A DNA stretch of 64,000 nt from IMG/VR virus record IMGVR_UViG_3300005264_000003, positions 23,349 through 87,348 of that record; one strand, given 5' to 3'. Source of the stretch: a virus. This document shows positions 19,348 to 55,387 of this stretch, piece by piece. A program made the translations under genes and the position numbers. The stretch's first letter is position 1. Each line of letters opens with the position of its first letter. The notes under the pieces were generated by a model that searched no databases, was not told the DNA's origin, and saw nothing but the letters and a program-made list of their open reading frames with translations.

Positions 19348-22300
19348 ATGTCGATTACGAATGAAGAGTTAGTAGAAATCCTAAAAGAAGCTGACCTGTG
19401 GCCACCAGTTAAGAAAGCTCCGGCAACTAGCATTAAGAAAGTGCATTCAGTACCAGAAGGATTGGTTACATATCATAATAAAGTAATAACTAGCCTTGTT
19501 GTTGTCGATGGTGATACGATTGAAATCGTTGAGCCTGGCATTGAAGATAATGAGTCTATACGTTATTATGGAATTGATACAAATGAAACAGCCAAGGACT
19601 GGCTAGGCAAGCCAGAAGAAGATTATGCTAACTGGCAGACACAAGTACATGATGAGCTAATAAGATATGCTATAGACAAGAATCTTCATATAGAAATAAG
19701 TGATCACCTAGCAGGTTACTTCGGTCGTACTGTAGCTGATATACGAATAGACGGATCTAGTGTATCAGGAATATTCGTAGGAGCAGGCATTACTCCGCCC
19801 AGCATGGGGGCAGATACGAAAGTAGTTCCAGATACATCTATTACTAAAAATCAAATCATAGCAAACTATAACACTGCTATGCATAAGCGTTCTGGTATCT
19901 GGAAAAATGTTGGCGAGTATGTCTATCACCCCAATAACAATATTGACGAAAAACTTATAATTGACCTGTTTAATGATACATATTCTACTAAAAGAAAACT
20001 AGGTAAAGGCATAACTAAGATTGGTGACGTGTATCTAGATATACCTCCTACGCAAATAGCTATTACTCAACTCAGAACATCACGCTCTGTGCCTCAATTG
20101 GGCGGTGAATCAAAGCCTATTAGTGAAAACTCAGCTAGAACAATCATAAAACTTCACTTAGTGTTCTCAGGCGAGGAGACTATAAACACTGATCTGGTAA
20201 GAATTTTACAGCAATTTAGGTACTGTCCAATAAACCTGCTTTACTCTTTCGATATATTTGAGAAAGTTGTAGGCGATAATAAATATCTACTAGAAGGATA
20301 TGGTCAAGTAGATGATGAGTGGTTTATACCTGTAACAATGGATGAGTATACTATACATACAATTGAAGGTCATCCATCCTCGCTTGGATGTGTCTTACAG
20401 TTATCTTTATTTAACTATGCAGCATACTTTAATGGAGATATAGCAGAGAAAGTTCAGTATTACAAATATGAAATTGAAAGTGGAGAAGTCGACTCTAAGA
20501 GATCTTTAGCTGGTGTAAATAGAGACTTTGTATACACTTCACACCTAGAAGAAGCTGTGCATCCATATAATTTATATATAACTAGTCACTTAAAAGATAA
20601 GTTGCACATGTTTAATGGTTCAGATAGCTATACTGAGCTATTCAAGGTAGCAGGCACTAGAACTCCCCCTAACTATGAAGCAATTAGCGCTAAAGATGCA
20701 GGTAGGCTTTCTGATGAACTAGATGAGCTTTACTTGATACTTAGCTCTAGAGTTAAAGAATTAACAATGTCTACGAGTATCTTTTTTAGGAATAACTTTA
20801 CATGGCTGCCAGTTATTGGATACTCACAACCAGTTGCACAATACATAGGGCCTGGAGACTCTGTAGTTACACTCGAGTTGCAAACTGAGGACAACTCAGT
20901 TATATCTAGTTTATTAAATACATTCGGAGAAGAATCAACAACAAGTATTGTTGATACATTTTATGATGATAGATATATATTATCTAACTCACTTACCAGA
21001 TTGTGTGCTACTGAAGTCTGCAGTATGAAGAATTTTTCAATGTCTAATGTTAGTGGTCACCCAGATGCGTCAGTTATTAATATGGTATTTTGTAAGACAG
21101 CATATGCCACTACAGCAAATGAGGTTAATCCTGTTGCTGAGTTTGACGAGTACTGGGGTCTTCAGAGAATATTAAAATCACTAGACAAAGAAGACATGGA
21201 GGCAATTGAAACTGAACTCAAGAGCGATAGAGTTACAAGACTAGACATTGGCGACAGTGCTGACTCTTTCATTAGGCTGGCAGAGAGAAGCGGAAAGACT
21301 GATACGGAAAAGAAGGTAAATGAAAAAACAATAGCTGCTATGACAGTTGCTCTTAATAAGCTAAAGGGACATAAGAATTCCATGGAGTTTAATGCCCCTG
21401 AGTTTCATTTGCTTCAATTTAGAACTAACTTAAATTCAAGTATATTAAGTGCACGAATGAGCGGTTTGTCTGGAAAAATTATTCTTCTAGATGGATTGAG
21501 CATGTATTCAAGAATGACGGTGTCTCAATTCCCTGCTAATAAAACACTAGATCAGCTTAATCTTAATGCGAATAAGGCATATAAGACTTACTATGGTGGA
21601 ATGCTTAGTTCTTATCCTCGCAGCCGGGTTGCCAAAGAGATGACTAGAAACTTCAGAGATGCCTTAGGCGGACACGGAGAAGCATCTAGGATATTAAGAG
21701 CTTATGTTAGTAAGGTATACGCAGGCGGATGGCTTACTAGTGATATAACAGGACCGCCAGTAAGCTTACTAGATTTAAGCGAGAAGCTGCATGAAGAATA
21801 CCTTAATCCTAGCTATAGTAATGACTATGTAAATAGAATTAACACTCATGGCACCTATAATGGACATGGATGGGATCTTTCTGATTACGATAGATGGATG
21901 GGTAAGCTGGTTGACAAGTTATGTCATGCAATTGAAGCTAAGTCAACTGGATTGCTTTCTAAGTTTAAAGAGAGGTGGAATGAGCAGTCTCTCCTAGAAA
22001 GCAAGGGATACTCTGTTATAATGAAGTTCGTTGGCACTGCAATAGAGGCTAGAGTTATTAAGACTGCTTTTATTTTAGGTAGCAGAGACGCTAATAGGAA
22101 AGAAGAAGTGTCTGAGGCAAGAGAATATTTCCATACCCCAAGGAATATATCGTACCCTTCATTTTCAGTTATATATAATGCAGATGATGGTACAGAAGGA
22201 ACTGATTTAATACTAACAGATAGTGATGCTAATGGAGAGTCTAAAAATTGGACATTTCAGGTAACATTTTTTCCTTCTGAGCACAATGAGGGCATTAGTA

Positions 22301-25300
22301 GATATTGGCACGAGGAGCCAGACTCTGAAGCTGCATCTGAAGCTGAGCTCGAAGAAGCTAGAGCAAAAATGGATGTAGTGTCACATGGCAATATAGTTAT
22401 ACCTTATGCTGGACATAGGTATTTCCCTAACATAGACTTATACCTGAAGCATCAAGAGATATTCTCTACTACCGTAGGGGAATGGTTTGCTAATAAATAT
22501 ATAGAGGACCCATATAAGATTTTCGAGCAAGTATCTGAATCAGTAGAGCAGTCTATAGCTCCACTAATGGATAGGCCGGCATGGGAAGCTACATACATTG
22601 AAAGAAGTCATGGTGTTGCATTTGCTAACAAGATAGCAGAAGACCCACATGATCCATGTAAGTTAGTTGCAGCTATTAACTGGATGAGTTTTGGTAAAGA
22701 TTTCAGTGAAGACAATCGAGACACAGCCTTATTAAAAGGCAAGCCTAATAGCACAGTAGATCGCTGGATAAATAAATGCATACCAGATATGATTCTTAGT
22801 AGCGAAGATGGTAGCCCTAAAGATCTCGACGTTCCTTTTAGTACTGTTCATCAGTGTGCTGCCCTTAGTAGTGGCTACTATGACTCGGCTAAGTTTCAAG
22901 GAAAAGAGATAGTTGCATTTAGAATGAATGTAATGAGTAAGACAAGTATGTCTCTCAATACAGCAGGACAAACATCTAGGGGATATAATCTTCAAAACAA
23001 GATGTGTGCTATAGAGTCAGATGGTGCACTATACTTGCCTTCAGATGTGCCTGAAGCTTCACTTGCTGGCAGCATAGATGATTCAGCTAAGTTCATTCAT
23101 TCTCCAGCAGACACGCAAATACACTACGGAGGCAACTATGCAAATGGGTGTGACTTGACATTATTGCAAAAGCACCCAGAGGGATTCGCAAAGGAGCTAG
23201 GGCGAGAACAACCTGCATTACAAGCGCTGGGTCAGAAAGATGGATTAAATACAATTGAAGCTGACGCAATGCTTAGGGAAAAATTCTATAAGATATTACT
23301 AAAAAGCAACAGTAAAGGTGCCGAGTTCAGTAAGTCGCCAGCACAACTAAGGGGTATAGCTAAGAGTCACGTAAGTACACTTAAAGACTCTATTGCTCCA
23401 GCTACAAATATTTACTATATGACAGAGAAGCTAATAGTAGATTATCTAAGCAACGGAGTAACGTCTGAACTAAAGGCTGATTTAAAAATAATAGTATCAA
23501 AGTACATAGCAGACTTTGGCCCCTTAATAGATGATGCGACAAAAGAGTTGGTATCTAGAAATGCTCTTGAATCTATGATGCCTACTATTGGGATAGAAAA
23601 TGCATTTCCTACATATAAAATGTATATAATTGAAGAAGACATGTCTGATATAAGATACTTCTCAATGGATGATTGGTATGATCTTAGGACAGCTCAAGAC
23701 TTGATGATTGTAAAGTCTAAAGACAATCCAGCACATATGCTTAAAGGTAGAATTATAGTAGATCATAGATATATAATTACTAGCGACAAAGTGAACCAGA
23801 AAGTTTCTGATATTAGCAATCCTCAGGAATTTGAAGTTGAGGCACCAGCACCGGGGATTGTTGATACTAGGGCTGAAAACCATTTCAATAAAGGAATGAC
23901 TCCGTTACGAGAAGGTATGAGAATTTGCATTAAACTAGGCTACCACTCTGACCCAAGAGCTATGGACACAGTCTTTATTGGTACGATTACAGGACTTAGT
24001 GGCAACATGAGTACTGGCGTATATGACCTAGAGGCTAGAGGTGATGGTAGAGAGCTACTAACTCCTCCGTCACAAGATGTAAAGCCTAATATCTCAGGAG
24101 AGAATTTTGCTGAGATTATATCTATTATGATGAGAAATAGCCCTGCTGTTATGCACTTTGGAAGAACATATGGTTCATTTTTAGAGAAATTCTCAAGAAG
24201 GCACTGGGCGCTATTTGCACTTGCTAAGCACGGAAGACTATCTAAGTCTCATGTTTTTGGAGCCGTAGGTATGTCAATGGGACTAGCTGCAAGATCAGCA
24301 ATCAGGCAGGCAGCCATGAAAGGATCTCTTTCTGAGGAAACTGGCATGGGCATGTGGGCGTACATGATTCATTCATTTAGTCGAAAGACTATGTCTGTAT
24401 ATGAAGAAACAACAGCCTTGTATAACAATACGCTTTTGCCTTTATCTGACAAAGGATCCCATGAGAGATGGGCTGCATATAGTAATAATATATTTGACGG
24501 CGATGATGGTAAATGGGGTATCTTTAGCTCAGAGTTTGGTAACGCAAAGTTCTCTCAAGTAAAGGGCTGGTTAGCAGGAAATACATTTGATCCAAGAAAG
24601 GCTAGTGCTCAAACTGCCGGCATACTATATAATACATTCAAGCAAGGCAATAATCCTATTGATGATAACATATTCGCTATTGATATTTGGAATACTTTTG
24701 TTCCATGGCGCACATTTGACATGCCAATCAATAACACAAGAACTATTTGGGATGTGCTTGTTGATATTAAGAGAATGTATCCAAACTTTGCACTTGACGT
24801 AAGACCGTATGGGTCTAGATCTACGCTATTTATGGGGCCTAAGGAGTTTAATATATGGAGAACTGACGACCCACTACAAGCAGTTGCTCCTCAGTTAGCC
24901 GAGATAACTACCAATGAGGCATCATGGGATGATAGTTTTAGCTATAACTTATCAGCTAAAGATGCCCTTAGGTCACAGGTTATATTGGATAGATTTGGTG
25001 ACCGGAAGCCATCAGAAAACAATGTAGCAGGATGGGTGCCATTTCAAAGGCAGCATACGGTATCTTCTTTCAGTGACATAGTAATGAATGGCATCCGATC
25101 TACTCCTTATAGAGGATGGAATAACGTCGTAGTAACGTATTCAAAAGGCCCTGGCGATAACGAGAGTAGGGCTCCTATTATGCAGTCTGCCAATGCAAAC
25201 TTAGATCCAAAAGCTATTAGAACAAAATATGCTAATATAGACTGGACAGATGATCCGCAAATGGCCAAGCAGTATGCCATTGGACTACTCAAAGAGGGCG

Positions 25301-26706
25301 TTGAGAGAATGTACGGCGGTACGTTAATCATAAGAGGTAACTCTAAGATAGAGCCGCATGATAAAGTATTTATATGTGACGCAGTTAATAAGATGTATGG
25401 ATGGATAGAAGTAGAAACAGTGATACATAAATTTGATCTAAGTATGGGCTTTACAACTCATATAGTACCAAACATGGTATGCTCTGTAAATAACGACTCT
25501 TATAGTACTTTTAGTAATGTATTTAGAAGACAAATGGTTGAAAAGTGGGGGACATTAATCTTAGGCTATGCCGGTGGCGCTGCTGTTGGATATGGAGTAG
25601 CAGGATTAATTGGTCCAATAGGATGGGTAGCAAGCGCTGTGGTTTCAACGGCAGCATTAAGTATAAGTGTTGCTGGTGCATATCGAGAAATAAAAAGCAA
25701 AGCAGAGTCTATAATGGATGCAGCTGAAGCCGAAGGCAAGGCCAGGAAAGAAGAGAGACTCTTGTCTGACAGACTAAATTTCATGTTTCTATCAGACGCT
25801 GTAAAACACGGATATGACAGAGGAATAGCGGCTCATTACCTATTAAGATTGTTAGGTGAAGATGGCCTAGGTATAAAAGCAAGAGACATAAGAATGCCTA
25901 AGCTAGCAGGAAAGAGGGCGATTAAGAAGGGCGTTGATATTGCAGCGGAAAGATGGGCTTTTGCATCAAAGTTTATTGGTGGATTTAGAGATGAGTACAA
26001 GGTAGGCAAAGCCATTAAGAAGCAAGCTTTATTTGATAGTATTGCAAAGGATGTTGGCAGAACAATTGACTGGGATGCTATTGATGCTGCACCAACATTA
26101 ACAGATGCGAGAGTTAAGTTAGAGGCTGAATTAAATAGCTTAATAGAAAAAGCTTCAGAGGAGCTATCTGACGATGCAAAGAAGACGATAACAAGATCGC
26201 TAGGCAGGGACTTTGGCGATGCTCTCGTGCCCAGGGATACTATCTCAAGAGCAGAGAGTTCTTCAGCAGGTGCGTTAAAGAGCACTAAAGCTAAGCTGTT
26301 AAAAAAGGTTAAAAAAGTTCGAGTAACGAAAGGCCTTAAGGCGGCAGGAGGCTTTGGGTTATCTGTTTTTGCAATAGGAGCAGACATGGCTCCAGCGCTA
26401 GTGGAAACATTTGTAGTTAATGCTATGTTAAACTCAAATACAATAATATGTCATCCGCTATACAGTAAGCATGGTATGCTTATGAATGGATTAGATGGAT
26501 ACCAAAACAAGACATCATATAAGCATCTTAAGGGTATGATAGTTCAAGCTGAAGGCTATGTTAATAAGGCTAAAGAGGCGCTTAGTGAATGGGATCACAT
26601 GTTCAACTTGAGCAATGGAGCGACACCTATGAGTGAAGACGCAGCAGCGCAACTAAGAGCTTCTGCTATTAACTTGAATGAGGATACAGGAGTAGGAGAT
26701 GAGTGA
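19348..26706 (+). CDS. Giant baseplate hub protein with N-terminal staphylococcal-nuclease domain
   Basis: A 2452-residue protein. Residues about 48-150 form a complete SNase/thermonuclease domain: DGDT at 54-57 (D56), R72, D77 and E80 with the exact R35-D40-E43 spacing of the S. aureus enzyme, and GYFGRTVADI with R127 in the R87 position. The middle part is unassigned. Residues about 1413-1900 look like a gp27/gpD-type hub: AFPTYKMYIIEEDMSD, then REGMRICIKLGYHSDP, VFIGTITG, and YDLEARGDGRELL. C-terminal hydrophobic segments (about 2070-2110 and 2330-2360) could enter membranes. AGAGGT precedes the start. The C-terminus overlaps the next gene by 8 bases. It would combine the DNA exit point of the tail with a DNA/RNA endonuclease. 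Confidence 0.75.
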   Translation: MSITNEELVEILKEADLWPPVKKAPATSIKKVHSVPEGLVTYHNKVITSLVVVDGDTIEIVEPGIEDNESIRYYGIDTNETAKDWLGKPEEDYANWQTQVHDELIRYAIDKNLHIEISDHLAGYFGRTVADIRIDGSSVSGIFVGAGITPPSMGADTKVVPDTSITKNQIIANYNTAMHKRSGIWKNVGEYVYHPNNNIDEKLIIDLFNDTYSTKRKLGKGITKIGDVYLDIPPTQIAITQLRTSRSVPQLGGESKPISENSARTIIKLHLVFSGEETINTDLVRILQQFRYCPINLLYSFDIFEKVVGDNKYLLEGYGQVDDEWFIPVTMDEYTIHTIEGHPSSLGCVLQLSLFNYAAYFNGDIAEKVQYYKYEIESGEVDSKRSLAGVNRDFVYTSHLEEAVHPYNLYITSHLKDKLHMFNGSDSYTELFKVAGTRTPPNYEAISAKDAGRLSDELDELYLILSSRVKELTMSTSIFFRNNFTWLPVIGYSQPVAQYIGPGDSVVTLELQTEDNSVISSLLNTFGEESTTSIVDTFYDDRYILSNSLTRLCATEVCSMKNFSMSNVSGHPDASVINMVFCKTAYATTANEVNPVAEFDEYWGLQRILKSLDKEDMEAIETELKSDRVTRLDIGDSADSFIRLAERSGKTDTEKKVNEKTIAAMTVALNKLKGHKNSMEFNAPEFHLLQFRTNLNSSILSARMSGLSGKIILLDGLSMYSRMTVSQFPANKTLDQLNLNANKAYKTYYGGMLSSYPRSRVAKEMTRNFRDALGGHGEASRILRAYVSKVYAGGWLTSDITGPPVSLLDLSEKLHEEYLNPSYSNDYVNRINTHGTYNGHGWDLSDYDRWMGKLVDKLCHAIEAKSTGLLSKFKERWNEQSLLESKGYSVIMKFVGTAIEARVIKTAFILGSRDANRKEEVSEAREYFHTPRNISYPSFSVIYNADDGTEGTDLILTDSDANGESKNWTFQVTFFPSEHNEGISRYWHEEPDSEAASEAELEEARAKMDVVSHGNIVIPYAGHRYFPNIDLYLKHQEIFSTTVGEWFANKYIEDPYKIFEQVSESVEQSIAPLMDRPAWEATYIERSHGVAFANKIAEDPHDPCKLVAAINWMSFGKDFSEDNRDTALLKGKPNSTVDRWINKCIPDMILSSEDGSPKDLDVPFSTVHQCAALSSGYYDSAKFQGKEIVAFRMNVMSKTSMSLNTAGQTSRGYNLQNKMCAIESDGALYLPSDVPEASLAGSIDDSAKFIHSPADTQIHYGGNYANGCDLTLLQKHPEGFAKELGREQPALQALGQKDGLNTIEADAMLREKFYKILLKSNSKGAEFSKSPAQLRGIAKSHVSTLKDSIAPATNIYYMTEKLIVDYLSNGVTSELKADLKIIVSKYIADFGPLIDDATKELVSRNALESMMPTIGIENAFPTYKMYIIEEDMSDIRYFSMDDWYDLRTAQDLMIVKSKDNPAHMLKGRIIVDHRYIITSDKVNQKVSDISNPQEFEVEAPAPGIVDTRAENHFNKGMTPLREGMRICIKLGYHSDPRAMDTVFIGTITGLSGNMSTGVYDLEARGDGRELLTPPSQDVKPNISGENFAEIISIMMRNSPAVMHFGRTYGSFLEKFSRRHWALFALAKHGRLSKSHVFGAVGMSMGLAARSAIRQAAMKGSLSEETGMGMWAYMIHSFSRKTMSVYEETTALYNNTLLPLSDKGSHERWAAYSNNIFDGDDGKWGIFSSEFGNAKFSQVKGWLAGNTFDPRKASAQTAGILYNTFKQGNNPIDDNIFAIDIWNTFVPWRTFDMPINNTRTIWDVLVDIKRMYPNFALDVRPYGSRSTLFMGPKEFNIWRTDDPLQAVAPQLAEITTNEASWDDSFSYNLSAKDALRSQVILDRFGDRKPSENNVAGWVPFQRQHTVSSFSDIVMNGIRSTPYRGWNNVVVTYSKGPGDNESRAPIMQSANANLDPKAIRTKYANIDWTDDPQMAKQYAIGLLKEGVERMYGGTLIIRGNSKIEPHDKVFICDAVNKMYGWIEVETVIHKFDLSMGFTTHIVPNMVCSVNNDSYSTFSNVFRRQMVEKWGTLILGYAGGAAVGYGVAGLIGPIGWVASAVVSTAALSISVAGAYREIKSKAESIMDAAEAEGKARKEERLLSDRLNFMFLSDAVKHGYDRGIAAHYLLRLLGEDGLGIKARDIRMPKLAGKRAIKKGVDIAAERWAFASKFIGGFRDEYKVGKAIKKQALFDSIAKDVGRTIDWDAIDAAPTLTDARVKLEAELNSLIEKASEELSDDAKKTITRSLGRDFGDALVPRDTISRAESSSAGALKSTKAKLLKKVKKVRVTKGLKAAGGFGLSVFAIGADMAPALVETFVVNAMLNSNTIICHPLYSKHGMLMNGLDGYQNKTSYKHLKGMIVQAEGYVNKAKEALSEWDHMFNLSNGATPMSEDAAAQLRASAINLNEDTGVGDE

Positions 26707-27076
26707 TTTAAGAGACATTACAAATCAGTCGAATGAGCTTAGAGACATAAGCAATAAAGGATTAAGCTCAGCATATAAGTCGCGGGAGGTTTCAATTGGC
26801 ACTGTTACCTCCTGTGCTACATTTAAAAATAAATTTATAGTTTACTTAATAGACGAGCACGTTTCGGTAGATGCAAAGCTTACAGGCATACTTAATGACT
26901 GGATAAGCTCTGCAAGGCCGAGCACTGGAGATCTCGTTTTGGTCTTACATAAAGCTACTAGTGATGCTATGATATTTGCGAAAATGGATGATAAGAGATC
27001 AGCAGAATATAAAGACAATGTAAAGTCTAATCCATTCCAGCAATGCAGGCACATGCAGGCACAGGGCCCAACATAA
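26699..27076 (+). CDS. Putative spike OB-fold protein
   Basis: A 125-residue protein overlapping the hub gene by 8 bases. After a polar N-terminus, residues 32-100 show the strand pattern of the small OB domain found in gp5/gpV spike proteins: VSIGTVTSC, FIVYLID, a TGILNDW loop, TGDLVLVLHK and DAMIFAKM. It has none of the lysozyme or beta-helix parts of T4 gp5. The next gene looks like the missing beta-helical tip, so the spike appears to be split over two genes. The call is based on pattern and on position between hub and gp25-like genes. Confidence 0.5.
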   Translation: MSDLRDITNQSNELRDISNKGLSSAYKSREVSIGTVTSCATFKNKFIVYLIDEHVSVDAKLTGILNDWISSARPSTGDLVLVLHKATSDAMIFAKMDDKRSAEYKDNVKSNPFQQCRHMQAQGPT

Positions 27077-27087
27077 CAGGAGTTAAT

Positions 27088-27486
27088 ATGGCTGTAAAAA
27101 ATAACGAGCTAAGCGGATGGGCGGCACCAAAAGAGAAGCCTGATGCGGAAAATGTCGGCATGGTTAATGTTGAACTTGATCATAGAAAAATAGCAACCAG
27201 ACAAGGTACAGCACAGATATATATACAAGACAATCAAATCACAGTATCGCATGGTGCCAATGGTCTTATGGTAAACGAAAGAGGTACAGCACTAATTAAT
27301 CCTTTGCATATAGCTACTGATCCTAGCATGACAAGAATAAATACATTTTGGGTGCTTAATGATGAGATAATGACTACGTTACCATCTACGATATATACAC
27401 CAATACCAATGCTAAGATACAAGAGACCTGCATTTGCAGATCAAGTAACTGATCTTGCTAAAAGATTAGCGTCATTAGGAGCGTAA
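27088..27486 (+). CDS. Putative baseplate spike tip protein
   Basis: A 132-residue protein. An in-frame ATG at 27043 exists, but the start at 27088 is preferred because ACAGGAGTTAAT gives a proper ribosome binding site and removes a 34-base overlap with the upstream gene. The centre has short alternating strands (AQIYIQDNQITVSHGANGLM, then VNERGTALINP) like the beta-helix of gp5C/gpV spikes. The final third (IYTPIPMLRYKRP) is proline-rich. No metal-binding HxH iron site of classical spike tips was seen. Neighbours (OB-fold protein before, gp25-like and J after) support a central spike role. Confidence 0.45.
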   Translation: MAVKNNELSGWAAPKEKPDAENVGMVNVELDHRKIATRQGTAQIYIQDNQITVSHGANGLMVNERGTALINPLHIATDPSMTRINTFWVLNDEIMTTLPSTIYTPIPMLRYKRPAFADQVTDLAKRLASLGA

Positions 27487-27946: not shown

Positions 27947-29161
27947 ATGGCTACCTACAGAGATAAGTTAGAGAGAATACTGCAGTCCATGCAAGAAAGA
28001 ACAGGGATGACAAACTTACTTCCTGGGTCCAAGGCATATCAGTTAGCTGAATCTTACGCATATGAGCAAATGCTTCAAGAAGCCAAACAGGAAGATTGGA
28101 CTAGTAGCAACAGTATATCTGAAGCTAAAGGCGAGAAGCTTGATGCTATATCTAAAGGGTTTTTTAAGATTCCTAGGCTAGAAGCTGTGAGGTCATATGC
28201 GTCCAGCTCAATGAAGGCTCTTAAGTTCTATACTGATGATGGATATACGTTCGGGTCCATCAATACAGATGAATCATCTAACGTTACTATGCAGCAAGAC
28301 ATCATTATAAACGAAGGAACTACGATAAGCGGAATAAGGGATGGCTTAATTTACAAGTTTAGAGTTATAGAAGATACAGTACTTGAAAAGAGTAGTAAGG
28401 AAGCATACGTAAATGCTGAGTTAATTCAAGGTGCTTCAGATAATATTCCAGCTAATATCTTAAAAATTCATAACTTTACAAATTATTCACAATCAGTTAA
28501 TGGCTTACTTAAAGTTACCAATCCTGTTCCAGTAAACAGCGGTAGGCCCAGAGAGCTAGATGAAAACTACAGGTTTAGACTTGCTAACTCAATGAGAGCA
28601 TTTCCAAAGACAACATCAGTAGCTATACATCAGCAAGTTACAAGTATGCCTGGAGTGTCAGACGTATACATAGAGACAGCTGCGAATGGCGGAGGTACTT
28701 TTACTGTTTACGTACAAGGCACTACTCCAATAACAAGCAATGACTTAATAGAGGATGTTAACTTGTCATTATCTCAAGTCATTAATCCTTGGCAGGTCAC
28801 TTACACTGTTACAAAGCCGCGTTATCTTGGAATATCTGCATCTTTAAATTTAGTATTTAAGGATGGTTTTAACCTGGCAGCATCTGAAATAGCAGTTAAC
28901 TCAATCATAAATTACTTAAATAACTTTAATGGTCAAGTGTTTTATGTTAATTCAATTCTTAGCATAGCGCAGGGTGTACATTCAGACATACTTGATGTAT
29001 CATTTAATTATGTAAGATTACATGTTGGATCTGAAGATATTCGATCCTATGAAGAGTTTAATTTAACAGAAGACCCTAACCCTACAATAGTACTGGAAGT
29101 TAAAGAGAAGCTAATTTCAGAGCCTATAACAAGTGCTATCATAGCTGTACCGGTGGTGTAA
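27947..29161 (+). CDS. Baseplate J-like (gp6/gp47-type) wedge protein
   Basis: A 404-residue protein with the full J-like layout: an N-terminal helical part (LPGSKAYQLAESYAYEQM), a central beta domain with GTTISG and VNAELIQGASDNIPANIL, then the signature VNSGRPRELDENYRFRL, then a region with TSMPGVSDVYIE and a C-terminal repeat of alpha/beta elements (VNSIINYLNNFNGQVFYVN). J proteins link the hub to the outer baseplate and start sheath contraction. Length is close to other J-like proteins of large myophages. A TTGGAG ribosome binding site precedes the ATG. Confidence 0.87.
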   Translation: MATYRDKLERILQSMQERTGMTNLLPGSKAYQLAESYAYEQMLQEAKQEDWTSSNSISEAKGEKLDAISKGFFKIPRLEAVRSYASSSMKALKFYTDDGYTFGSINTDESSNVTMQQDIIINEGTTISGIRDGLIYKFRVIEDTVLEKSSKEAYVNAELIQGASDNIPANILKIHNFTNYSQSVNGLLKVTNPVPVNSGRPRELDENYRFRLANSMRAFPKTTSVAIHQQVTSMPGVSDVYIETAANGGGTFTVYVQGTTPITSNDLIEDVNLSLSQVINPWQVTYTVTKPRYLGISASLNLVFKDGFNLAASEIAVNSIINYLNNFNGQVFYVNSILSIAQGVHSDILDVSFNYVRLHVGSEDIRSYEEFNLTEDPNPTIVLEVKEKLISEPITSAIIAVPVV

Positions 29162-29162
29162 T

Positions 29163-32027
29163 ATGCTATATTATCCTTATAACGCAATAACATCAAAAAC
29201 GATTAGCCAATTTCGGTATAATCTATATTCTGCTATAAGCATTAATATGCTTAAGTATAATCATGATTCATCTGCGACCCTGAGATTATTAAGTAGCTTA
29301 ATTGATTCTAGTTGTGAAATAAATGAAGACCTGCCTTATCAATTTAGGTTTAACTTTAAGGATTTTGAATTTGTTAACATAGATAGACTTAATGGATTTT
29401 CCTTATCCTCAGTTGATAATTTTTCAAAAGAAAACCAAGAAGGTAAGCAGCTATATGGATATTCAAGATATACGAATGAGTACTATCCGCTGGAGATAAT
29501 TAAAAGAAGGAATGATTTAATAAGACATTCTTTACCGACAGGAGCTTTCTTTAGCAGTATGACGATAGTGAAAGACCCTGAATTGTCATTAATCTACCCT
29601 AACACTAAATCTAATATCGGGCTAAAGGTTGAAGATAGTAGTATTACGATACAGCCTGTATCTGGATTTAATTTTCTAGGCCGAGAAAGCGATAGCCCTA
29701 TAAAGATTACTATATTTGGATTAGATACGTTTGGTGAAAGTATTGAAGAAGAAGTATTAATAGAAAGCAATATTGACTATATAACGATTAGTGAATTTAG
29801 TTTTATAGACAGTGCTATGGTAACAGGCGCAAATTACTCTGTTGAGATAATGATATACCCCTACATAAGAGGAAGTGTTGTTGTATGGAACAATGATTAT
29901 ATTGACAGAGATACAATGGATGAGTACAATACGGTGCTAACAGTAAATAGAGAGGCGCATCAATTAGTATTCAACATGCTAAGAGAGAATCCATCTGAGT
30001 ACCCGTATAACTACGAGCCCGTTAAAACCGTAGACTTCAACATGCCTGATAGTGAGATTATAATTGCTGAGTTTATAGATGTATCTAATAAGCTAATATA
30101 TATATCTTCGGAAAATGATGGAGCCTTTTACTTAAGATGCTATCCTTTAGTAGTGCCAAAAACAAACATTAACACACTTGACAGTATTAAGACCACAGAT
30201 CAGTCAGTAAGAATAGAGTGCCTGGAAGACTGTGTAGGTGAGAAGTTTGTGCTATGGATTTTCCCAACATCTAAGTCTAATGATGTGGATTTTATGCACA
30301 TTTTCATTGATGGAAAAGCATATAAGCAAGACATACTGCTAGACTTAATAAGAGAGGGAATAGAAACAAATAGGATAGAGATACCTTTTTCTGACATCAT
30401 ACCAGCTCCGCCAGATAATTCATTAGACATTCCACCGGTAGTGCTAGACAATCCTAATGCTTATGGGTCAGAGTCTGGTGATATGTTTGGTGGCTCTGTA
30501 GATATGTGTGATTCATATATAATAGCTGGAGCTAGCCGTGAAGATGACCCTAATGGTTCAAGCTCTGGCAAGGCATATATATATAATAAAGAAACTGGCG
30601 CACTTATTCACACCTTAAATAACCCTAGTGGCTATGGTGGCAGCAATGAAGATTACTTTGGTTATGCCGTCGGTATATGTGAGTCGTATAGTGTTGTAGG
30701 CGCTTATTATGAGGATGATCCTAATGGGACATATGCTGGTAAGGCATATATATTCGACAATGTCACAGGAGAGTTATTGCATGTGTTAAATAACCCTAAT
30801 GCCATTGGTGACAGTAGTTACTTTGACTTATTTGGCAGCGCTGTTTCTATATGTGAATCTTATTGTGTCATAGGGGCGCATGGCGAGAGTGAAGATTCAG
30901 CAGCAGGACTCTTGGAATATGGTACAGCCTATTTATTTAACAATAAAACCGGAAGCCTGTTGCATCAGTTAGTTAATCCGGCAACGAAAGGCAGGTTTGG
31001 TCAGGCTGTTTCAGTATGTGAATCTTATAGTTTAATAGGGGCGTCCATGGACTCCACTAATGGAACATGGCGAGGCTCGGCACATATATTTAGTAATACT
31101 ACAGGAGAGCTGTTGAATACAATTGGTGTCCCAGATAGCATATTTTTTGGTCAAGCTGTTTCTATATGTGAATCTTATAGTCTTATTGGCGCATCTGACA
31201 GGAAAGCTAATGGTGTACATATAGTCTCTGATGCGTATTTATTTAAAAATACAACTGGAGAACTAGTACATACAATAAAGAATCCAAGGACTTATAATGA
31301 AGATGGTAGTGATCGTTTTTCATATTCTGTTTCAGTATGCGAATCTTATAGCTTAATAGGGGCATCTGGTACAGATGGTGAGTCCGGGAAAGCATATCTC
31401 TATAATAATAAGACAGCCGAGCTAGTTAGGCTAATTAATAACCCTAATGCATCTGGGTCAGAAGCGGGAGATAAGTTCGGCGGCTCTATATCTATTTGTG
31501 AGTCGGGCTATGTAATAGCAGCAATTGGCGAAGGATCAGGCGGACAAGCCTATGCATATAAATTACTTCAACCAATGGAAGATGATAACTGTGCGCTAGT
31601 AGAAGTAAAGACATTTGGCGAAGTGCAGTCAGTTCAGCCCATCTTTCTTGACAGAACTAAGCTTACTGCTTTATGGCAAAAGTCTCTTGATAACTACGAC
31701 TTAGCTTTCAAAGACAGCCCAGCAATAGAAGCACTAGAGCCATCAATTAAGTCTTCTAGAATACAATATACTCCGATTGGTGCATATGGATATGGCGAAG
31801 AAGGATATGGCGGGTTAATAAGTGGATCAGATGAAAGCTTTGGCTATGGAGGCTTTAAAGAGCCAGATAGATCATTGCTGTTTAAGCTGTCGAATATAAG
31901 CCAAGTAACGCTTGATGGGTCCAGGATTGTGCATGTGTTTAATTCATTTTACTATAATGAAGAAGACGACATTGTCGTTACATCAGATACAATAACTCAC
32001 ATAACATCTAACATGGAGATGTCTTAA
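29163..32027 (+). CDS. Baseplate protein with internal seven-bladed FG-GAP beta-propeller
   Basis: A 954-residue protein starting one base after the J stop. Residues 1-425 form a baseplate-like N-terminal part with no known motif. Residues about 428-803 contain seven tandem blades, each with a variant of FGxxVxxCESYxxIGA followed by a KAYIYNNxTGEL-type strand: FGGSVDMCDSY, FGYAVGICESY, FGSAVSICESY, FGQAVSVCESY, FGQAVSICESY, FSYSVSVCESY and FGGSISICESG. These are FG-GAP repeats, as in integrin alpha heads. The calcium-loop aspartates are only partly conserved. The C-terminal 140 residues continue the structural part (glycine-tyrosine-rich GYGEEGYGG). The propeller may bind host surface glycans or proteins. 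Confidence 0.7.
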   Translation: MLYYPYNAITSKTISQFRYNLYSAISINMLKYNHDSSATLRLLSSLIDSSCEINEDLPYQFRFNFKDFEFVNIDRLNGFSLSSVDNFSKENQEGKQLYGYSRYTNEYYPLEIIKRRNDLIRHSLPTGAFFSSMTIVKDPELSLIYPNTKSNIGLKVEDSSITIQPVSGFNFLGRESDSPIKITIFGLDTFGESIEEEVLIESNIDYITISEFSFIDSAMVTGANYSVEIMIYPYIRGSVVVWNNDYIDRDTMDEYNTVLTVNREAHQLVFNMLRENPSEYPYNYEPVKTVDFNMPDSEIIIAEFIDVSNKLIYISSENDGAFYLRCYPLVVPKTNINTLDSIKTTDQSVRIECLEDCVGEKFVLWIFPTSKSNDVDFMHIFIDGKAYKQDILLDLIREGIETNRIEIPFSDIIPAPPDNSLDIPPVVLDNPNAYGSESGDMFGGSVDMCDSYIIAGASREDDPNGSSSGKAYIYNKETGALIHTLNNPSGYGGSNEDYFGYAVGICESYSVVGAYYEDDPNGTYAGKAYIFDNVTGELLHVLNNPNAIGDSSYFDLFGSAVSICESYCVIGAHGESEDSAAGLLEYGTAYLFNNKTGSLLHQLVNPATKGRFGQAVSVCESYSLIGASMDSTNGTWRGSAHIFSNTTGELLNTIGVPDSIFFGQAVSICESYSLIGASDRKANGVHIVSDAYLFKNTTGELVHTIKNPRTYNEDGSDRFSYSVSVCESYSLIGASGTDGESGKAYLYNNKTAELVRLINNPNASGSEAGDKFGGSISICESGYVIAAIGEGSGGQAYAYKLLQPMEDDNCALVEVKTFGEVQSVQPIFLDRTKLTALWQKSLDNYDLAFKDSPAIEALEPSIKSSRIQYTPIGAYGYGEEGYGGLISGSDESFGYGGFKEPDRSLLFKLSNISQVTLDGSRIVHVFNSFYYNEEDDIVVTSDTITHITSNMEMS
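30450..31570 (+). repeat. Seven tandem FG-GAP repeat units
   Basis: Within the 954-residue baseplate gene, seven units of about 48-58 codons repeat the pattern Phe-Gly-x-x-Val-x-x-Cys-Glu-Ser-Tyr-x-x-Ile-Gly-Ala, a variable loop, then Ala-Tyr-x-Tyr/Phe-Asn. The number matches a closed seven-bladed propeller. Units 4-6 are closest to each other, suggesting recent duplication. Confidence 0.75.
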
Positions 32028-40110: not shown

Positions 40111-40398
40111 ATGACTAATGATGATTACTATGTAAGTAAAGTATTTATGTCAGATAGCAGCCTTGTTATCAATAGCATTAAAACTCAAGTCCTAAACGGA
40201 TTTAAACAAAAGATTATAGATTTAGAGTTGGCAACAGAAGATGATGTAATTCTCGATGCGCTTGCTTCACATTTACTAGTACTAGAGGATGCGTATAATA
40301 TAAGTATGTATAAGTTTCAATTTAAAATATTCACTGGAATAGTTAACAGAGAACTTGCAGCCATTAGAGAGATGGTAGAATATGAAGAGACAGTATGA
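40111..40398 (+). CDS. Small all-helical protein, unknown
   Basis: A 95-residue protein predicted to be helical throughout (VINSIKTQVLNGFKQKIIDL; MYKFQFKIFTGIVNRELAAI). There is no clear ribosome binding site; its start lies 3 bases after the previous stop and its end overlaps the next start by ATGA, so it is translated as part of a coupled chain. It could be a small assembly factor or adaptor for the neighbouring Cas4-like nuclease or the large baseplate proteins. No family recognised. Confidence 0.4.
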   Translation: MTNDDYYVSKVFMSDSSLVINSIKTQVLNGFKQKIIDLELATEDDVILDALASHLLVLEDAYNISMYKFQFKIFTGIVNRELAAIREMVEYEETV

Positions 40399-41243
40399 TA
40401 AAGGAGCTATTAGAAAGACACTTTATTAAAGATGCAAAGGAACCAAGAAAGCATATCGATAGATTCTATCCAACTCAATCATCAGTTCCAGTTAGCAAGC
40501 GTTCATATATAAAGCTAGAGGGGAAATGTCTGAGGGCAGCCTATTATAGCTGTCTTGGGTTACCAGAAGAGGCCGAGTTTAGCTTAACTAAGCAGTTGAT
40601 CTTCGGTATGGGAGATTATACTGAAAGCCTTATTCTTGATACTTTAGAGAAAGAAGGTAGTTTATTTGACAGGAATGTTAAGTTTTTCTCTGAAAAATAC
40701 AAGATCAGCGGTAAGCTTGATGCTATAATCTTAGATGAGAATGGCAAGAAAGTTGGCCTAGAAGTTAAGAGTATTGGAAGCAATAAGTATGCATACGGTA
40801 GAATTTATGGAGACAGGTGGAATAAGCCATTTCCTAAATGGCAGAACTTACTACAAACAATAGTATACTGTTACGCATATAAGGACACTATAGATAAGTT
40901 TATCCTTATGTATATAAGAAGAGATACTTGTGAAATAAAAGAATTTGAAGTATCAATAGTGCCAAGAGATGGAAAAATGTATCCAGTTATCGACGGCATT
41001 GTAGATGAGAGCTTTTGTGTAGATGATATATTAAGTAGATACGTCACTTTATTATCATTTATATCGAAGAAAGAAATTCCTCCTAAGGAGTATCAGCTAG
41101 TATATCCATCTAACTACATTTCAACATATAATAAACTAGGCATATTATCAGACTGGCAAGTTGAGAAATATATGAAAGAGCCTTTTGGTGATATAGAATG
41201 TAAGTTCTGTGGGTATGCGAATCGATGCATTAAGGATAAGTAA
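40395..41243 (+). CDS. Cas4/RecB-like PD-(D/E)XK nuclease with four-cysteine iron-sulfur site
   Basis: A 282-residue protein with the complete core of Cas4-like nucleases. Catalytic residues: D109 (SGKLDAIIL), E123 and K125 (GLEVKSIG), and a QNLLQTIVY helix with Q150, Q154 and Y158, the QxxxY motif. Four cysteines fit a 4Fe-4S cluster: C45 in GKCLRAAYYSC and C269, C272 and C278 in CKFCGYANRC. This is the C...CxxCx5C arrangement of Cas4 and AddB. The predicted activity is DNA exonuclease or end processing. It lies inside the coupled tail-gene chain (ATGA before, TAATG after) rather than with replication genes, which is unusual. It could act in DNA replication or packaging; virion location is untested. 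Confidence 0.78.
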   Translation: MIKELLERHFIKDAKEPRKHIDRFYPTQSSVPVSKRSYIKLEGKCLRAAYYSCLGLPEEAEFSLTKQLIFGMGDYTESLILDTLEKEGSLFDRNVKFFSEKYKISGKLDAIILDENGKKVGLEVKSIGSNKYAYGRIYGDRWNKPFPKWQNLLQTIVYCYAYKDTIDKFILMYIRRDTCEIKEFEVSIVPRDGKMYPVIDGIVDESFCVDDILSRYVTLLSFISKKEIPPKEYQLVYPSNYISTYNKLGILSDWQVEKYMKEPFGDIECKFCGYANRCIKDK

Positions 41244-54763: not shown

Positions 54764-55387
54764 ATGAAATATATACTGATAGTATTAGCATTACTGCTTA
54801 CATCAACTGTCTATGCTGAGACAGACTGCACTATGTGTCATTCAGATAATGCATTGCAATACAATGCTGTAAGAATAGCTGATCAGTATGAAGGATTAAC
54901 AGAGTTAACAAATAAAAATGACGGACCCGAAATTACTGAATGGTTATCTAATACAGGACTAGGGTCCGGTTATCCTTACTGTGCAGCATTTACATATAGT
55001 ATGTATAAGGAGTCTCGTGACTTCTTGCATATTAAAAATACAACTCTTCCATATAGGTCAGCAAGAGTATCTTCTATCTATTATTATGCAAAGAAAAATC
55101 CATTCAAGTATACAGTTATAACTCCTGGTCAAGTTAAGCTAGGAATACACAGTTTATGTGAGGGAGATATTCCAATATGGACACGAAGCGCAGAGTCAGT
55201 TGAGAACTTTAACGGACACACTGGACTAGTAATAGAGCAGGTTAATCAAGTAGAATTTAAAACTATAGAAGCCAACACAATGTCAAGCAATAAAGGTGAT
55301 CAAGGTGAAGGCGGCGGAGTATTCTATAAGACTAGATATGTAGATGATCCAAGTTTTCGACTCAAAGGCTTTATAAGACTTAAATAA
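54764..55387 (+). CDS. Secreted CHAP/NlpC-type endolysin
   Basis: A 207-residue peptidoglycan hydrolase. Residues 1-18 form a Sec signal peptide (MKYILIVLALLLTSTVYA) with a typical VYA cleavage site, so export does not need holin pores. The catalytic set is visible as C73 in YPYCAAFTYSMY, H152 in NGHTGLVIEQ and E169 or N171 in TIEANT, the Cys-His-Asn/Glu arrangement of CHAP amidases or peptidases. A CxxCH motif (C22, C25, H26) follows the cleavage site and may form a regulatory disulfide. It ends the lysis cassette and is followed 9 bases later by a fibre gene. Confidence 0.75.
   Translation: MKYILIVLALLLTSTVYAETDCTMCHSDNALQYNAVRIADQYEGLTELTNKNDGPEITEWLSNTGLGSGYPYCAAFTYSMYKESRDFLHIKNTTLPYRSARVSSIYYYAKKNPFKYTVITPGQVKLGIHSLCEGDIPIWTRSAESVENFNGHTGLVIEQVNQVEFKTIEANTMSSNKGDQGEGGGVFYKTRYVDDPSFRLKGFIRLK

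What the first reader, a model, noticed from the sequence alone, without database searches (positions are those of the whole stretch)
19348..19800. Staphylococcal-nuclease domain fused to the baseplate hub
D56, R72, D77, E80 and R127 reproduce the active-site residues of S. aureus nuclease with exact R-D-E spacing. The domain is the N-terminus of a 2452-residue hub. A nuclease at the tail tip is not a known baseplate feature; it could degrade host nucleic acid outside the cell, in the periplasm or on entry.
Basis: partly seen in the sequence, partly recalled or inferred. Interest (0 to 1): 0.72.

Follow-up and report, generated by a model that had tools for sequence, protein, structure and literature searches.

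The report
Nuclease domain on phage baseplate hub
The giant hub protein at the tail tip of this uncultured contractile-tailed phage begins with a complete DNA/RNA-cutting domain of the staphylococcal-nuclease type whose active site is preserved in its nearest relatives; one such hub was already noted in 2007, but the arrangement turns out to be common in this phage group and its purpose is still unknown.

Summary
ORF 19348-26706 (2452 aa) is a baseplate-hub homologue of the 0305phi8-36 lineage. A profile built without the window scores it 59.8 bits (best of 2000 shuffles 7.6), and an AlphaFold2 model matches SNase crystal structures. D54, D56, R72, D77, E80 and R127 are all present. Added here: 46 of 75 dereplicated hubs carry an SNase domain, at N-terminal, middle or C-terminal positions; sequence affinities suggest several separate captures; D21, R35, E43 and R87 equivalents are nearly invariant while Ca-ligand D40 drifts; one sub-clade looks dead. 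Best reading: an active, probably Ca2+-dependent nuclease displayed on the virion and working outside the cytosol during attachment and entry. Activity, exposure and substrate are untested.

The parts
19348..26706 (+). Baseplate-hub homologue, 2452 aa, carrying the SNase domain
   Evidence: PHROG hub families phrog_8809/phrog_20474; homology to the ME3 'baseplate hub protein' and the KLEB27-3 'putative baseplate protein'; weak profile match to solved chain 9euf_E, E=0.0037
19489..19908 (+). SNase domain, aa 48-187
   Evidence: leave-window-out profile 59.8 bits, aa 48-186; Pfam PF00565 aa 71-187; AlphaFold2 model of aa 35-190, pLDDT 75.6, listed PDB matches all staphylococcal nuclease
19507..19518 (+). 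DGDT motif; D54 and D56 (equivalents of D19/D21, Ca2+ ligand region)
19561..19587 (+). R72-x4-D77-x2-E80 (equivalents of R35, D40, E43)
19726..19728 (+). R127 (equivalent of R87) in GRTVADI
20017..20430 (+). First conserved hub segment, aa 224-361; SNase-less hubs L050, L052, L053 and L049/L080 begin at or shortly before it, so the SNase region is a detachable N-terminal module
   Evidence: blastp
23590..24168 (+). Conserved hub core 1, aa 1415-1607
   Evidence: alignment A2; 79-hub scan
24721..25509 (+). Conserved hub core 2, aa 1792-2054, containing the part that matches a solved phage protein
   Evidence: alignment A1
27947..29161 (+). Baseplate J-like wedge protein downstream: baseplate gene neighbourhood
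   Evidence: Pfam PF04865 E=2.7e-16; PHROG baseplate wedge E=2e-29

Best explanation
The N-terminus of this phage's giant hub is a catalytically competent nuclease of the staphylococcal (micrococcal) type. It was captured from a stand-alone SNase gene and fused in front of the conserved hub core, so every virion should carry it at the tail tip. Proposed mechanism: SNases need millimolar Ca2+ (established for the S. aureus enzyme). In the cytosol, where virions assemble beside phage DNA, Ca2+ is too low and the enzyme is silent. Outside the cell, or in the wall space or periplasm, it is active and clears nucleic acid at the site of attack, such as extracellular DNA/RNA in the matrix or on the envelope, while the tail's peptidoglycan hydrolases open the wall. 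Shown here by sequence: domain, active site, conservation in relatives, fusion to the hub, recurrence in the lineage. Inferred: catalytic activity, presence in the virion, site of action, substrate.
For: Complete SNase domain far above chance, with an SNase-like model and a profile match to S. aureus nuclease at E=6.5e-32 (alignment of 19 that includes the window). All six active-site residues are invariant in the nearest relatives L104, L105 and L106 although the N-terminal region is only 35, 34 and 22% identical. Across 18 N-terminal, middle or L045-type hub SNases the equivalents of D21, R35, E43 and R87 are 18/18, and across 29 C-terminal-type domains 29, 29, 25 and 24 of 29 (L001 and L068 read by eye). 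SNase domains occur in 46 of 75 dereplicated hubs at three positions, which points to selection for having a nuclease on the hub rather than for one architecture. The window SNase scores 69.5 bits against stand-alone SNases and 21 against other hub SNases. Wall hydrolases use the same kind of variable slot in sister hubs and lie just downstream of SNase hubs in pAD3 and pN497-ZHONG, which fits a role at the envelope stage.
Against: No activity or virion data for any SNase hub were found. One C-type sub-clade (L020, L021, L037, L043) has lost the E43, D40 and R87 equivalents yet keeps the domain, and D40 is replaced in 6 of 18 and 22 of 29 domains, so a non-catalytic role exists at least in some. 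Relative L107 has no detectable SNase, so the domain is dispensable. The compartment argument rests only on the Ca2+ dependence of the family.
Confidence: 0.55

Rival explanations
1. The nuclease is delivered into the cytoplasm or periplasm with the hub or ejected proteins and attacks host DNA/RNA, plasmids or nucleic-acid-based defence at the start of infection.
For: Intact active site. Hub and tail-tip proteins are the first to meet the envelope (general knowledge of contractile tails).
Against: It would have to act at low cytosolic Ca2+, beside the incoming phage DNA, and be released from a 2452-aa structural protein. No release site was identified; no tool here tests this.
Confidence: 0.15
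2. The fold is kept mainly as a structural or nucleic-acid-binding OB-fold module of the baseplate; catalysis is secondary or lost.
For: One sub-clade has a degenerate active site but keeps the domain; D40 varies; OB folds are common in tail hubs (general knowledge).
Against: In the window group all six catalytic residues are invariant at 22-35% identity; the domain is absent from several hub architectures and turns up at three positions, unlike a fixed structural part.
Confidence: 0.18
3. The nuclease acts mainly after lysis, cutting released host DNA so that virions disperse and are not trapped.
For: Intact active site; same biochemical requirements as the best explanation (extracellular Ca2+, virion display).
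Against: Nothing here separates it from the entry-stage reading; a secreted stand-alone enzyme would serve as well.
Confidence: 0.12

Closest known systems
BtI1/BwK1 hub homologue RBTH_07687 of the phage 0305phi8-36 lineage (Hardies, Thomas and Serwer 2007, PMC2147016)
   Same: SNase domain at the N-terminus of a greatly enlarged hub; 'not obvious why' it is there
   Different: Different host and a very distant sequence; in BtI1 (paper) and in pAD3/pN497-ZHONG separate wall-hydrolase genes follow the hub, whereas none was recognised directly after the hub here
Bacillus velezensis pAD3 and Cytobacillus oceanisediminis pN497-ZHONG hubs, RefSeq product 'nuclease' (WP_207169201.1, WP_243509945.1)
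   Same: ~2450-aa hub with SNase at aa ~155-345, intact active site
   Different: SNase of another sequence lineage; carries about 150 residues before the SNase
Acinetobacter phage vB_AbaM_ME3 baseplate hub (AND75198.1)
   Same: Homologous hub with an intact SNase domain
   Different: SNase in the middle of the protein (aa ~1090-1250), next to an M23-type peptidase domain
Staphylococcus aureus thermonuclease and stand-alone phage SNases (PF00565, phrog_452)
   Same: Fold and active-site residues
   Different: Free enzymes; here a module fused to a structural protein
0305phi8-36 gp147, T4 gp27/gp5 and similar hubs carrying peptidoglycan hydrolases
   Same: An enzyme displayed on the hub
   Different: They cut peptidoglycan, not nucleic acid (PMC2147016)

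Membership tests
Staphylococcal nuclease (SNase, PF00565) | Sequence profile match over the full domain | tested here: met
   59.8 bits, aa 48-186, with a profile lacking the window; Pfam above cut-off for the N-terminal 200 aa, below it for the whole protein
Staphylococcal nuclease (SNase, PF00565) | Catalytic set D21, R35, D40, E43, R87 | tested here: met
   D56, R72, D77, E80, R127
Staphylococcal nuclease (SNase, PF00565) | OB-fold barrel with helices, SNase topology | tested here: met
   AlphaFold2 model pLDDT 75.6, pTM 0.70; listed PDB matches all SNase, E about 5e-6, but TM only 0.45-0.62
Staphylococcal nuclease (SNase, PF00565) | Ca2+-dependent cleavage of DNA/RNA | not testable with these tools
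   needs a biochemical assay
Baseplate hub of the 0305phi8-36 lineage (T4 gp27 / P2 gpD type) | Homology of the core to known members | tested here: met
   PHROG phrog_20474 1.4e-30 and phrog_8809 6e-26; ME3, KLEB27-3 and MTATph1 by tblastn
Baseplate hub of the 0305phi8-36 lineage (T4 gp27 / P2 gpD type) | Detectable relation to a solved hub structure | tested here: inconclusive
   only 9euf_E, a peptidase-C51-domain protein, E=0.0037 over 53 residues; gp27 itself not hit; 0305phi8-36 record not held
Baseplate hub of the 0305phi8-36 lineage (T4 gp27 / P2 gpD type) | Position in a baseplate gene cluster | tested here: met
   baseplate J-like wedge gene four genes downstream; tail sheath-like gene upstream
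Baseplate hub of the 0305phi8-36 lineage (T4 gp27 / P2 gpD type) | Presence in the virion | not testable with these tools
   no virion proteomics for this uncultured phage

The most novel reading that the evidence does not exclude
A virion-displayed nuclease is a recurrent, independently re-acquired feature of the 0305phi8-36-like phages: at least four or five separate captures of SNase onto the hub at three sites, kept catalytically active in most groups (with a tolerated change of the D40 Ca2+ ligand) and decayed in one. This would make tail-tip nucleic-acid degradation a general but overlooked step of infection.
Probability: 0.35. Interest if true: 0.7.

Novelty: new member of a known kind. 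Interest (0 to 1): 0.48.

Why it matters
In 2007 Hardies and colleagues could not say why a phage hub should carry a staphylococcal nuclease. The survey here shows it was no oddity: most hubs sampled in this large phage lineage have one, in different places, usually with the active site intact. If active, it is a nucleic-acid-cutting tail-tip enzyme to set beside lysozymes and depolymerases, and cultured hosts (Bacillus, Cytobacillus, Acinetobacter) make it testable. The degenerate sub-clade offers a natural negative control.

Tried and rejected
Chance motif: rejected. First AlphaFold2 job with 7 sequences failed (pLDDT 35.6) and was not used; the second, with 19 SNases, worked. Single-sequence searches of the solved structures found nothing. 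Relatives by P0001 or P0002 alone: none; conserved-core alignments were needed. A tree of hub cores has very long branches (ME3, window, L048), so capture counts rest on leave-one-out scores and best hits, not on the tree. C-type domains do not hit the solved structures, nor Pfam for the two tested; they are called SNase-like from the N-type profile and hhalign 96.5%. The idea that SNase and hub-fused wall hydrolases exclude each other was dropped: ME3 and L045 have both, and L105 carries an M15-like insert as well. The idea that the hub SNase of G005 arose from a same-genome gene was not supported: its stand-alone SNase is closest to other stand-alone ones. A suspected frameshift between the two ORFs at 26699-27486 was dropped: relatives show the same two-frame arrangement. 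Literature searches for other hub nucleases found only PMC2147016.

Full report
WHAT IS THERE. The window is part of an 87,348-base IMG/VR virus record. ORF 19348-26706 encodes 2452 residues. Its conserved parts match the giant baseplate hubs of the 0305phi8-36 lineage: PHROG families phrog_20474 (1.4e-30) and phrog_8809 (6e-26), and by tblastn the ME3 'baseplate hub protein', the KLEB27-3 'putative baseplate protein' and an MTATph1 protein annotated 'endolysin'. A baseplate J-like wedge gene follows at 27947, and a sheath-like and a head-protein-like gene lie upstream. The hub core matches one solved protein, 9euf_E, weakly (E=0.0037).

THE SNASE DOMAIN IS REAL. The first 200 residues pass the Pfam SNase cut-off (6e-5), although the full protein scores just below it. 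A profile of 18 other SNases, without the window, gives 59.8 bits over aa 48-186, against 7.6 for the best of 2000 shuffles. In the 19-sequence alignment D54, G55, D56, T57, R72, E80 and R127 are invariant and D77 nearly so. That alignment matches S. aureus nuclease at E=6.5e-32. An AlphaFold2 model (pLDDT 75.6) finds staphylococcal nucleases as its listed PDB matches, with moderate TM-scores of 0.45-0.62.

CLOSE RELATIVES KEEP THE ACTIVE SITE. A scan with a hub-core alignment brought L104 (40% identical over the whole hub), L105, L106 and L107. L104-L106 carry the domain; over the N-terminal region they are 35, 34 and 22% identical to the window, yet all six catalytic positions are invariant. 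L107 has no detectable SNase but has an SLT transglycosylase at its C-terminus; a DGDS...R-x4-D-x2-E remnant can be read in its N-terminus by eye. More distant L108 has neither the domain nor the leader, and an M23 peptidase instead.

THE LINEAGE. From 121 hub sequences dereplicated to 75, SNase domains are found in 46: 15 N-terminal, 1 in the middle (ME3) and 30 C-terminal; 29 have none, some of them truncated. SNase-less hubs such as L050 and L053 start at or just before the segment that follows the SNase in the window. The C-terminal type is recognised as SNase by the N-type profile (1e-9 to 1e-3) and by hhalign (96.5%, 88 columns), though not by the solved-structure search. Leave-one-out scores suggest separate captures: the window domain scores 69.5 bits against stand-alone SNases and about 20 against other hub SNases; ME3, L045, L048 and L002 likewise score higher against stand-alone SNases; the Bacillus/KLEB group and the C-type group each score highest against themselves. 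The core tree has branches too long to count events reliably.

ACTIVE-SITE PATTERN. In N/middle/L045-type domains the D21, R35, E43 and R87 equivalents are present in 18 of 18 and D40 in 12 of 18 (others Q, N, E). In C-type domains the counts are 29, 29, 25, 24 and, for D40, 7 of 29 (mostly N) (two rows, L001 and L068, were re-read by eye because the script took an earlier R). From memory of the enzymology of the S. aureus enzyme, loss of R35, R87 or E43 is far more damaging than loss of D40, so this pattern fits selection for catalysis; the tools could not confirm that literature. The sub-clade L020/L021/L037/L043 has lost E43, D40 and R87 and is probably inactive.

RELATION TO WALL HYDROLASES. 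SNase-less hubs often carry Glucosaminidase, Lysozyme-like, SLT, VanY or M23 domains, but not always (L121, L122), and ME3 and L045 have both SNase and a hydrolase. In B. velezensis pAD3 and Cytobacillus pN497-ZHONG the SNase hub ('nuclease' in RefSeq) is followed directly, or after one gene, by separate wall-hydrolase genes, as described for BtI1. So SNase does not replace wall cutting; it shares the same accessory positions. In the window no hydrolase was recognised next to the hub; a weak CHAP-like match lies at 54764-55387.

PRIOR ART. Hardies et al. 2007 (PMC2147016) described the N-terminal SNase domain of the BtI1 hub, proposed transfer from a stand-alone gene, and called its use obscure. 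The spread over three positions, the D40 drift and the decayed clade were not found in the papers searched.

MECHANISM. Shown: domain, active site, conservation, fusion, recurrence. Inferred: activity, virion display, site and substrate. The Ca2+ dependence of the family (general knowledge) makes action outside the cytosol the simplest account, with silence during assembly; injection into the cell and a purely structural role remain open.

Noticed in passing
L020, L021, L037, L043 (C-terminal domain of the hub): SNase domain with DGDE/NADE, D40 to I, E43 to N/K/S and R87 to K/D: a probably dead nuclease kept on the hub.
   Followed up: partly
C-type hubs (e.g. L007-L012, L017, L029) and L001, L002, L022, L044, L126, L141: The D40 Ca2+-ligand position is replaced by N, Q, T or E in many of these while D21, R35, E43 and R87 stay: a possible altered metal site.
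   Followed up: partly
L105 hub aa ~1381-1475 (inserted at window aa 1324): M15-like peptidase domain inserted in a close relative and absent from the window, showing how readily enzymatic modules come and go in this hub.
   Followed up: partly
L126 record (G005, 203,584 bases): One phage genome carries both a hub SNase and a stand-alone 135-aa SNase; they are not closest to each other.
   Followed up: yes
NZ_AP024502.1, NZ_CP065512.1, NZ_CP035189.1, NZ_CP118109.1 and others: 200-240 kb 'plasmids' of Bacillus, Cytobacillus and Paenibacillus encode this hub and baseplate genes: phage-plasmids or carried phages of the 0305phi8-36 lineage.
   Followed up: partly
window 29163-32027: 954-aa baseplate-region protein with about seven degenerate repeats of the form FGxSVSICESYxxIGA...GKAYIYNNxTGELxHTLNNP, resembling beta-propeller (FG-GAP-like) repeats; no DNA-level tandem repeat.
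   Followed up: no
window 54764-55387: Weak CHAP-domain match (21.4 bits, below the cut-off of 26): candidate cell-wall hydrolase of this phage.
   Followed up: partly
window 40395-41243: Weak PD-(D/E)XK nuclease match (16.8 bits, below cut-off) inside the presumed structural gene region.
   Followed up: no
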